From NCBI GenBank assembly GCA_007128865.1, contig SKWP01000068.1, positions 1 through 7,990 of the forward strand: a stretch of DNA of 7,990 bases, in the 5' to 3' direction. Position 1 is the stretch's first letter; every line of letters starts with the position of its first letter. The notes beneath the pieces were generated by a model. The model was not told where the DNA came from and did no database searches. It saw only the letters and a program-made list of their open reading frames with translations. The stretch comes from Paracoccaceae bacterium (GTDB lineage: Bacteria; Pseudomonadota; Alphaproteobacteria; Rhodobacterales; Rhodobacteraceae). The translations under genes were made by a program, and so were the position numbers. Positions 1 through 7,071 of this stretch are shown here, one piece after another.

Positions 1-39
1 AAAGTGCAGGCTTCTGTTGCCAGGTGCCTGCGAACCCCG

Positions 40-61
40 CCTTGCGCGGCTAAGCGCAAGG
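40..61 (-). other. Hairpin in tmRNA coding piece downstream of tag
   Basis: CCTTGCGC (61-54) and GCGCAAGG (47-40) form a perfect 8-bp stem with loop TTAGCC. It lies 26 nt after the tag stop. A second stem, GCAGGC (31-26) with GCCTGC (11-6), follows. No T-run is seen before the window edge, so these are probably structural elements of the tmRNA coding piece. A terminator, if present, would lie further left. Confidence 0.6.
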
Positions 62-87
62 ACTTCAGGTTTCGATGTCGTTACCGC

Positions 88-126
88 TTACGCAGCAACG
101 GCCACCGGAGCACGGTTGTCGTTGGC
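88..126 (-). other. ssrA: tmRNA proteolysis-tag reading frame (ANDNRAPVAVAA)
   Basis: The frame has twelve sense codons then TAA. The resume codon is GCC (126-124), directly after a GTACAGTT context. The encoded tag ANDNRAPVAVAA follows the alanine carried by tmRNA itself. It opens with the widespread ANDN and ends in VAVAA; an Ala-Ala end with a hydrophobic residue before it is the signal read by ClpXP/ClpAP. Confidence 0.93.
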
Positions 127-212
127 AACTGTACTTTGCGGACCGATAACGGTGGTACCTCACCGGGACAAAGCAAACCCCTTTAGACGTTCGTCGATCC
201 TGTTTCGGCCCC

Positions 213-235
213 GCTTCCCGCCAACGCCGGGTTTC
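213..235 (-). other. ssrA: tmRNA intervening segment removed in processing
   Basis: These 23 nt lie between the encoded CCA of the acceptor piece and the 5' G of the coding piece. They contain CCCG and CGGG arms able to cap the acceptor stem as a small hairpin. In known two-piece tmRNAs this segment is excised by tRNA-maturation nucleases (RNase P on the 5' side of the coding piece). Exact cuts are inferred from the tRNA-like ends. Confidence 0.75.
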
Positions 236-316
236 TGGTGGAGCCGCCGGGTACCGCCCCCGGGTCCGATCCGCTTATTACGGGCGCGTTTATGTCCATA
301 GTCCCGTTGCCGGAAC
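236..316 (-). ncRNA. ssrA: tmRNA acceptor piece
   Basis: This is the upstream segment of the permuted gene and carries the T-arm and the 3' side of the acceptor stem. The T-stem is CCGGG/CCCGG with a 7-nt loop GGCGGTA, followed by CGGCTCC, A and an encoded CCA ending at 236. The 5' end near 316 is inferred from the promoter -10 box at 328-323. CGGGAC at 306-301 could pair with GTCCCG at 169-164 in the coding piece, a candidate helix holding the two pieces together. The T-loop lacks the usual UUCRA motif, which I recall as normal for alphaproteobacterial two-piece tmRNAs. Confidence 0.85.
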
Positions 317-322
317 ATGCTG

Positions 323-351
323 AAGATAGGCGCAGGCCGGCCGCACTGCAA
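323..351 (-). promoter_or_regulatory. ssrA promoter (sigma-70 type)
   Basis: On the minus strand TTGCAG (351-346) and TATCTT (328-323) are separated by exactly 17 nt. Transcription would start near 316-318, giving an acceptor precursor of about 80 nt, a sensible size for two-piece tmRNA. The position relative to a clear RNA gene is the main support. Confidence 0.65.
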
Positions 352-392
352 GGGCCTTGCCAGGGACGGCGCCGCCCGGATGCCGGCGCGAT

Positions 393-5847: not shown

Positions 5848-7071
5848 ATGACGGTTCTGACTTCGACGGAGGGGCAGCGCGGGTTGCCGCGCTACTTCGC
5901 CACGGTATTTGCCATGGCTTCGGGCCTGTCCAACGGGCGGCTCGACATCGTGCTTCCCGACGGGCGCCGGTTTCGCGTGGAAGGCCAGCGGCCCGGTCCC
6001 GTGGCCGAGGTTGTGGTCCACAACCCCGACACCTTTGCCCGGCTGATCCGCGACGGCGATCTGGGGTTTTCGGAGGCCTACATGGACGGCTGGTGGTCCA
6101 CCCCGGACCTTCAGGCCTTCATGGACCTGATCCACAACGACAATCCCGCGCTCTACGACGACTATCCGGGGCGGGCACTGGCACGGCTGTTCGAACGGCT
6201 GCGGCACTGGCTGCGCTCCAACAGTCGCGGGCAGGCGCGGCGGAACATCGCGCATCACTATGACCTCGGGAACGAATTCTACCGGCTCTGGCTGGACGAA
6301 AGCATGACCTATTCCTCGGCGCTGTTCCGCACCGGTCAGGAGAGCCTCGAACGGGCGCAGGAACAGAAATACGCCGCCATCGTCGATGCCCTGGGGGTGC
6401 GACCGGGCGAGCATGTGCTCGAGATCGGCTGCGGCTGGGGCGGGTTTGCCGAATACGCCGCCGGGGTTCGCGGGCTTCGCGTGACCGGCCTGACAATTTC
6501 AGCCGAACAGCACGCCTTTGCCACACAGCGCATCGCCCGTGCGGGGCTTTCCGACCGGGTCGAGATCTGTCTGCGCGACTACCGCGACGAACGCGGCAGC
6601 TATGACGGCATTGCCTCGATCGAGATGTTCGAGGCGGTCGGCGAAAAATACTGGCCGGCCTATTTCCAGACCCTGCGCGACCGGCTGCACCCCGGCCGCT
6701 CGGCCGCGTTGCAGATCATCCTGGCGCAGGATGCCCGCTTTGCGGCCTATCGCAGCCGGGTGGACTTCATCCAGAAGTACATATTTCCCGGCGGCATGCT
6801 GCCCGGCCCCACGGCGCTGCGCGACCAGATCAACCGCGCCGGCCTGCACCTGAAGGGCTCGATGGAATTCGCCGAAAGCTACAGCCAGACCCTGCGTCGC
6901 TGGCACGACACATTCGCCGCCCGCTGGGACCAGATCGCAGGGCTGGGTTTTGACGATCGTTTCCGGCGGATGTGGGAATTCTACCTTACATCCTGTGCCG
7001 CAGCCTTTCGCACGGGCATCTGCGATGTGACACAGATCACCGTGCACCGGCCGGAGACTGCCGCCTCATGA
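5848..7071 (+). CDS. CFA-synthase-like SAM-dependent lipid methyltransferase
   Basis: A 407-residue enzyme of the cyclopropane-fatty-acyl-phospholipid synthase family, which transfers a carbon from SAM to the double bond of membrane phospholipid acyl chains. Seen: an N-terminal CFA domain (about 1-125) with GFSEAYMDGWW; HHYDLGNEFY (136-145) with MTYSSALF (153-160); SAM motif I EIGCGWGGF (192-200); GLTISAEQ; SIEMFEAVGEKYW (257-269); KYIFPGGMLP; and YSQTLRRWHDTF with Y345. Relative to E. coli Cfa, the bicarbonate-site Cys139 is Ser157, His266 is replaced by Gln289 or Ile290, and the His after Glu239 is Ala263, while the Glu (E262) and Tyr remain. A methyl-transferring relative such as R. sphaeroides UfaM (methylated/furan fatty acids) is therefore as likely as true Cfa. 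The start ATG 5848 has AGGGG (5838-5842) 5 nt upstream; the in-frame TTG 5821 has none. It overlaps trgA by ATGA. Confidence 0.93.
   Translation: MTVLTSTEGQRGLPRYFATVFAMASGLSNGRLDIVLPDGRRFRVEGQRPGPVAEVVVHNPDTFARLIRDGDLGFSEAYMDGWWSTPDLQAFMDLIHNDNPALYDDYPGRALARLFERLRHWLRSNSRGQARRNIAHHYDLGNEFYRLWLDESMTYSSALFRTGQESLERAQEQKYAAIVDALGVRPGEHVLEIGCGWGGFAEYAAGVRGLRVTGLTISAEQHAFATQRIARAGLSDRVEICLRDYRDERGSYDGIASIEMFEAVGEKYWPAYFQTLRDRLHPGRSAALQIILAQDARFAAYRSRVDFIQKYIFPGGMLPGPTALRDQINRAGLHLKGSMEFAESYSQTLRRWHDTFAARWDQIAGLGFDDRFRRMWEFYLTSCAAAFRTGICDVTQITVHRPETAAS

What the first reader, a model, noticed from the sequence alone, without database searches (positions are those of the whole stretch)
1..316. Circularly permuted two-piece tmRNA gene, invisible to protein-gene calling
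On the minus strand an acceptor half with encoded CCA precedes a coding half that starts GGGGCCG. The two ends pair over 7 bp including the G.U identity pair, and a tag frame ANDNRAPVAVAA with TAA follows. Several spurious ORFs cover the region. It firmly places the genome among alphaproteobacteria.
Basis: partly seen in the sequence, partly recalled or inferred. Interest (0 to 1): 0.7.

Follow-up and report, generated by a model that had tools for sequence, protein, structure and literature searches.

The report
Ordinary two-piece alphaproteobacterial tmRNA gene
This stretch holds a complete copy of the well-known rearranged tmRNA gene of alphaproteobacteria, whose transcript is predicted to be cut into two RNAs that would together free stalled ribosomes and tag the unfinished protein for destruction; it is ordinary for its group.

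Summary
The minus strand of window 355-3 matches Rfam RF01849 (alpha_tmRNA) over the whole model, 296.9 bits against a cut-off of 50, and also RF04321. It is the only match in the 67% complete assembly. ARAGORN run in a script calls a permuted tmRNA with tag ANDNRAPVAVAA; the ready-made tool returned nothing, probably because the call runs off the contig end. The acceptor stem (246-240 with 212-206, G3.U included) pairs in 55 of 55 aligned sequences, the window's included, with compensatory changes in up to 26. 54 of 60 relatives carry the family. The identical tag occurs in at least 117 stretches of named genomes. A partial smpB, cut by a contig end, is in the same genome. Cutting into two RNAs is inferred from the family. 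The gene is standard: already known, low interest. A side observation is more interesting: relatives G257 and G001 have exchanged parts of the tRNA-like domain, in G257 beside a displaced partial copy 6.4 kb away, as if a mobile element had replaced them.

The parts
3..355 (-). alpha_tmRNA gene (ssrA), whole Rfam RF01849 match including upstream promoter-like sequence
   Evidence: cmscan 296.9 bits, model 1-355 of 355; sole match in the genome
349..352 (-). -35-like CTTG (predicted promoter)
   Evidence: in the alignment of 55 sequences C 43, T 54, T 50, G 32 of 55; the sigma-70 consensus scan reported no site
323..328 (-). -10-like TATCTT (predicted promoter)
   Evidence: T 54, A 55, T 51 of 55 in the first three columns, then C 12 (A 39), T 47, T 35
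301..316 (-). 5' leader hairpin of the acceptor piece (316-312 with 305-301); predicted transcript start near 316
   Evidence: helix 1, 96.0% of cells paired, 4 of 5 pairs with changes on both sides
236..316 (-). predicted acceptor RNA (about 81 nt), ending in encoded CCA
   Evidence: RF01849 structure; compares with 82 nt reported for S. meliloti
247..263 (-). T arm with the alpha-type loop GGCGGTA
   Evidence: helix 6, 100% of cells paired; loop GGCGGTA in 139 of 140 parsed rows, in which the window's gene counts twice
240..246 (-). acceptor stem 3' strand CGGCUCC
   Evidence: helix 7, 55 of 55 paired at each of 7 positions
236..238 (-). encoded CCA
   Evidence: sequence; invariant in the alignment A1
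213..235 (-). intervening loop, 23 nt, predicted to be removed
   Evidence: length 23 in 60 of 140 parsed rows, range 21-48
206..212 (-). acceptor stem 5' strand GGGGCCG, predicted start of the coding RNA; G3.U pair at 210/242
   Evidence: G.U at the third pair in 55 of 55
166..297 (-). P2-type helices joining the two pieces (297-293 with 170-166, and inner parts)
   Evidence: helices 2-5: 98.9, 94.5, 79.5 and 86.7% of cells paired
150..165 (-). PK1-type stem CGGUG/CACCG upstream of the resume codon (second pseudoknot stem not established)
   Evidence: helix 8, 84.4% of cells paired; my trial of a second stem gave no pairs
88..126 (-). tag reading frame ANDNRAPVAVAA plus UAA stop
   Evidence: sequence; ARAGORN; same tag in at least 117 stretches of named genomes
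40..61 (-). hairpin CCUUGCGC/GCGCAAGG downstream of the tag
   Evidence: helices 9-11, changes on both sides in 8 of 8 pairs, 83-94% of cells paired
6..31 (-). 3' terminal hairpin GCAGGC/GCCUGC with inner CUG-GCAA-CAG
   Evidence: helix 12, 93.5% of cells paired; the contig ends 5 bases further on; no minus-strand terminator was found by the scan

Best explanation
It is a circularly permuted alphaproteobacterial tmRNA (ssrA) gene, whose single precursor is predicted to be cut into an acceptor RNA of about 81 nt and a coding RNA of about 210 nt that would stay joined by base pairing. Shown here: the sequence, the covarying structure, the tag frame, and a partial smpB gene in the same genome. 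Inferred from the family: tRNA-processing enzymes remove the 23-nt loop (RNase P at G212, a 3' processing step after A236), alanyl-tRNA synthetase charges the acceptor RNA through the G3.U pair, SmpB and EF-Tu bring it to a stalled ribosome, translation resumes at GCC 126-124, and the tag sends the product to proteases such as ClpXP.
For: RF01849 at 296.9 bits over the full model and RF04321 at 139.7 bits; sole match in the assembly; ARAGORN tmRNA* with the same tag; family found in 54 of 60 relatives; 55-sequence covariation with both controls; partial smpB in the same genome; identical tag in at least 117 stretches of named genomes, of which 110 of 117 parse with acceptor stem, CCA and loop. 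S. meliloti northern sizes of 82 and 204 nt for the two pieces (passages of PMC2245857).
Against: The ready-made ARAGORN tool found no gene; the script run shows a call that runs off the contig end, which probably explains it. With a relaxed threshold ARAGORN adds seven further calls in the window, which I take as noise. One inner pair (271/190) is G-A in the window and unpaired in 41 of 55; one inner helix is at 79.5%. No promoter or minus-strand terminator by consensus scan. smpB is cut by a contig end. No RNA evidence from this organism.
Confidence: 0.97

Rival explanations
1. The gene is a decayed or displaced copy, left at the edge of a mobile element that recreated the working gene elsewhere; the contig end at its 3' side would hide this.
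For: The contig ends 2 bases beyond the match. A displaced partial copy does exist in a relative, G257:C26:42280-42622.
Against: The window copy is full length with both acceptor strands, CCA, tag, 3' hairpin and conserved promoter-like boxes, and no second match is found in the assembly, which is however only 67% complete.
Confidence: 0.02
2. The RNA is transcribed but works as one uncut molecule, the loop being kept.
For: Cutting was not tested here; the loop is short (23 nt).
Against: The loop varies in length (21-48 nt in 140 parsed rows) and sequence while its flanks are conserved, CCA is encoded right before it, and S. meliloti shows two pieces of 82 and 204 nt (passages).
Confidence: 0.01
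3. The region is protein-coding and the RNA match is coincidental.
For: ORFs of 60-156 aa overlap it on both strands (a 90-aa ORF at 317-589 also touches it).
Against: E=1.6e-86 to a covariance model and changes on both sides in 39 of 56 pairs are not explained by any of these frames.
Confidence: 0.001

Closest known systems
alpha_tmRNA, Rfam RF01849 (two-piece tmRNA; Caulobacter type)
   Same: Full-length match, order acceptor-loop-coding, encoded CCA, 7-bp acceptor stem with G3.U, alpha-type T loop, tag, 3' hairpin.
   Different: Nothing of note; only normal sequence variation.
tmRNA_permuted, Rfam RF04321 (merged alpha, beta and cyano model)
   Same: Matches over the whole model, 139.7 bits, cut-off 47.
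   Different: Lower score than RF01849, as expected for a more general model (passages of PMC11915505).
Standard one-piece tmRNA (RF00023)
   Same: tRNA-like domain, tag function and SmpB partner (recalled).
   Different: In the standard gene the coding part lies inside, between the two halves of the tRNA-like domain; here the order is swapped and a loop lies between CCA and the coding 5' end. RF00023 gave no separate row (overlapping matches of one clan are left out by the tool).

Membership tests
alpha_tmRNA (RF01849) | Covariance-model score above the curated cut-off over the full model | tested here: met
   296.9 against 50 bits, positions 1-355 of 355
alpha_tmRNA (RF01849) | Permuted order: acceptor piece with CCA upstream of the coding piece, short loop between | tested here: met
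   CCA 238-236, loop 235-213, GGGGCCG 212-206; ARAGORN permuted call
alpha_tmRNA (RF01849) | Acceptor stem with G3.U alanine identity pair | tested here: met
   7 of 7 pairs; G.U in 55 of 55 aligned sequences
alpha_tmRNA (RF01849) | Open tag frame starting at an Ala resume codon, ending in small and hydrophobic residues and a stop | tested here: met
   ANDNRAPVAVAA then UAA
alpha_tmRNA (RF01849) | Two pseudoknots in the coding piece | tested here: inconclusive
   One PK1-type stem and two 3' hairpins supported; my trial of a second PK1 stem gave no pairs
alpha_tmRNA (RF01849) | SmpB encoded in the same genome | tested here: met
   PF01668, 97.7 bits, positions 1-78 of 143, gene cut by the end of the 9110-base contig
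alpha_tmRNA (RF01849) | Transcript matured into two RNAs | not testable with these tools
   Known for S. meliloti, 82 and 204 nt (passages)
alpha_tmRNA (RF01849) | Charging with alanine and tagging in vivo | not testable with these tools
   Function of the Caulobacter two-piece tmRNA is reported in a review (passages of PMC3985003)

The most novel reading that the evidence does not exclude
Because the permuted gene puts the tRNA-like domain into one contiguous block, mobile elements and phages swap it, whole or in part, as a cassette while the tag half stays native: in G257 the T arm and acceptor end are exchanged beside a displaced partial copy, and in G001, of the window's own genus, the whole block is divergent and its T arm and acceptor end equal those of permuted tmRNAs on viral contigs.
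Probability: 0.3. Interest if true: 0.4.

Novelty: already known. Interest (0 to 1): 0.08.

Why it matters
For the window itself it matters only as a correct annotation: the region is an RNA gene, the overlapping ORFs are spurious, and the draft genome has a ribosome-rescue system. The side observation in relatives suggests a simple way to ask whether permuted tmRNA genes let mobile elements replace the tRNA-like half without touching the tag.

Tried and rejected
The sigma-70 consensus scan found no promoter; promoter-like boxes were instead seen by conservation. A lasting link between the tmRNA gene and the neighbouring BCCT transporter gene was looked for and not found: blastn of the window against three genus-mate stretches aligned only the tmRNA region, and the best transporter relatives lie on other contigs than the tmRNA gene in G001, G003 and G005; G002 and G004 had no tmRNA match. 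These are fragmented assemblies, so the comparison is limited.

A donor for the G001 tRNA-like block was not found among phage or plasmid records. Among 295 family genomes 86 matched the block, but no match covering more than half of it exceeds 75% identity; those of 76-94% cover 35-97 of 195 bases. Outside its T arm and acceptor end the G001 block was no closer to the viral genes (mean 0.59 and 0.67 identity, 14 of 15 rows, one dropped as too short) than to the cellular ones (0.64 and 0.71, 50 of 54 rows, four not caught by the motif), which speaks against a simple transfer of the whole block from those viruses. The viral stretches were found by a 24-base pattern from that arm, so their identity there is by selection. 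In a third genome, G165, the ordinary-type T arm lies at a contig start while its RF01849 match is elsewhere, on C33; I did not follow it.

My motif parser required GGGG, a fully paired 7-bp acceptor stem and CCA, so those are conditions, not results. It missed 8 of 148 sequences: six are cut by the end of the held stretch, L014 has a T arm one base shorter, and L116 was not explained. A trial of a second PK1 stem gave no pairs. In this final version the odds of the novel case were lowered from 0.35 to 0.3, because in G257 only the T arm and acceptor end, not the whole block, were seen to differ.

Full report
Observation. The window is a whole contig, G000:C332, of a draft genome of 2.84 Mb in 491 contigs, 66.86% complete. 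Its minus strand from 355 to 3 matches Rfam RF01849 (alpha_tmRNA) over all 355 model positions at 296.9 bits, cut-off 50, and RF04321 (tmRNA_permuted) at 139.7 bits, cut-off 47. No other match was found in the assembly. The find_trnas tool reported nothing, but ARAGORN 1.2.41 run in a script on the same sequence reports a permuted tmRNA, c[-4,328], tag ANDNRAPVAVAA, also when padded; a relaxed threshold adds seven calls that I take as noise. The negative coordinate probably explains the tool's empty answer; that is inference.

Anatomy, read. Promoter-like boxes CTTG 352-349 and TATCTT 328-323 (predicted); leader hairpin 316-301; P2-type strand 297-293; T arm 263-247 with loop GGCGGTA; acceptor strand CGGCUCC 246-240; A 239; CCA 238-236; loop 235-213; GGGGCCG 212-206; partner strands down to 166; PK1-type stem 165-150; resume codon GCC 126-124; tag to 91; UAA 90-88; two hairpins, 61-40 and 31-6. 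The contig ends at 1, within a few bases of the probable 3' end. The consensus scan found no promoter and no minus-strand terminator.

Conservation. 55 of 61 searched genomes (the window's own and 54 of 60 relatives) match RF01849; the six without are G002, G004, G026, G058, G059 and G060, five of them under 90% complete. Of 14 control genomes only Caulobacter vibrioides matches. On an alignment of the 55 main matches, the window's included (the weak second match in G018 was left out), I counted the Rfam structure as placed on the window plus stems that I added (a PK1-type stem and two 3' hairpins, one with an inner stem). It pairs in 92.3% of 2948 cells, against 79.0 (sd 0.4) in shuffles and 35-46% when slid; 39 of 56 pairs have changes on both sides. 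The added stems come from the window sequence, so control (b) leans in their favour. The acceptor stem is paired in 55 of 55 at each of 7 positions; its two variable pairs show changes on both sides in 7 and 26 sequences; the G.U pair never varies. Weak points: pair 271/190 is unpaired in 41 of 55, one inner helix is at 79.5%, and the PK1-type stem is at 84.4%; a second PK1 stem was not established.

Distribution of the tag. The exact tag, back-translated, hits 117 stretches in the named genome collection, and the scan stopped at its limit. The titles (80 rows, all 117) are mostly Rhodobacteraceae and genera that I recall as allied; I did not look the taxonomy up. 110 of the 117 parse with acceptor stem, CCA and loop; six of the other seven are cut by the stretch end and one is unexplained. 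ARAGORN finds 93 of these 117 and 46 of the 55 aligned genes, all as permuted; of its 24 misses among the 117, seven are those that my parser missed too. So ARAGORN alone misses some genuine genes, one of them in the same genus (L024).

Partners and surroundings. smpB is present at G000:C308:8872-9105, 97.7 bits, positions 1-78 of 143, cut by the contig end. RNase P, EF-Tu, ClpXP and alanyl-tRNA synthetase were not searched. The neighbours are a BCCT transporter, a class-V aminotransferase, a DNA photolyase and a CMAS-type methyltransferase; three further ORFs gave no Pfam match. The transporter neighbourhood is not shared by the genus mates that could be compared.

Mechanism. Shown: an intact gene of the permuted type. 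Inferred from the family: one precursor is cut into an acceptor RNA of about 81 nt and a coding RNA of about 210 nt. Passages of PMC2245857 give 82 and 204 nt by northern blot for the two ends of the S. meliloti tmRNA. Passages of PMC3985003 say that the two-piece gene is permuted, that maturation probably uses RNase P and tRNase Z, that the Caulobacter molecule works in trans-translation, and that ClpXP perhaps degrades the tagged products in alphaproteobacteria. Passages of PMC11915505 describe the permuted form, its 11,946 unique sequences and the models used here. Passages of PMC11633108 count ssrA in 2,293 of 2,376 alphaproteobacterial genomes. The original papers (Keiler 2000; Sharkady 2004) are not held and I know them only by citation. 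Other papers were seen as listings only.

Side observation. In G257 (same family, other genus) a tmRNA gene with 270.3 bits at C26:35875-36227 has a T arm and acceptor end of the ordinary tRNA-like type. 6.4 kb further on (start to start) lies a second match of 187.4 bits, 42280-42622, which keeps the family-type T loop and 3' part but whose first part does not resemble the gene by eye; ARAGORN calls only the first. Between them lie ORFs that look to me like type I restriction-modification genes (read by eye, not searched; no integrase was searched for). This looks like integration of an element into the gene, a habit of genomic islands mentioned in PMC11915505 (passages). In G001 (same genus as the window) the block from P2 to the resume codon is 53-65% identical to the window outside the intervening loop (loop 26%), while the tag segment is 100% and the 3' part 84% identical; two other genus mates keep 85-100% in that block outside the loop. 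Its 32-base T arm and acceptor end is absent, at up to 2 mismatches, from 385 class genomes (G001 and G257 were not among them) and present in G001 alone of six genomes of the genus. A looser pattern for such an ordinary T arm hits 2 of 394 family genomes, G165 and G257 (G001 was not among them). A 24-base core of the G001 arm occurs in 15 viral stretches, 12 of which ARAGORN calls permuted tmRNA; 14 of 15 share all 32 bases. Outside that arm the G001 block is no closer to the viral genes than to cellular ones, so the donor is unknown. Phage two-piece tmRNAs are in print (passages of PMC9004378).

Verdict. The finding is real and correctly interpreted, and it is an ordinary, already known kind of gene.

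Noticed in passing
L168:1320-1672 (G001:C337): Mosaic-looking tmRNA in the same genus: native tag and 3' half, but a divergent tRNA-like block with T loop TGCGATT instead of GGCGGTA; donor not found.
   Followed up: partly
L235:176-528 and 6581-6923 (G257:C26:35875-36227 and 42280-42622): tmRNA gene with exchanged T arm and acceptor end, plus a displaced partial copy 6.4 kb away, with ORFs between that resemble type I restriction-modification genes by eye; looks like an element integrated into the permuted tmRNA gene.
   Followed up: partly
G018:C1:3230194-3230345 (in L175): A weak second match (41.2 bits, below the cut-off) about 7 kb from the intact tmRNA gene, possibly another integration remnant; ORFs of the stretch were listed only.
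   Followed up: partly
L234 (G165:C80:24-55): An ordinary-type T arm and acceptor end at a contig start, while the genome's RF01849 match lies on another contig, C33.
   Followed up: no
L177-L191: 15 viral contig stretches share a 24-base T-arm and acceptor end; ARAGORN calls a permuted tmRNA in 12 of 15, with varied tags such as ANDDVYALAA.
   Followed up: partly
relatives: ARAGORN misses 9 of 55 RF01849 matches, one in the same genus (L024), and it reads one tag that starts with Gly (GNDNRAPVALAA).
   Followed up: no
window 1-3: The find_trnas tool returned no gene where the same program in a script reports one with a negative end coordinate; the tool apparently drops calls that run off the contig.
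   Followed up: partly
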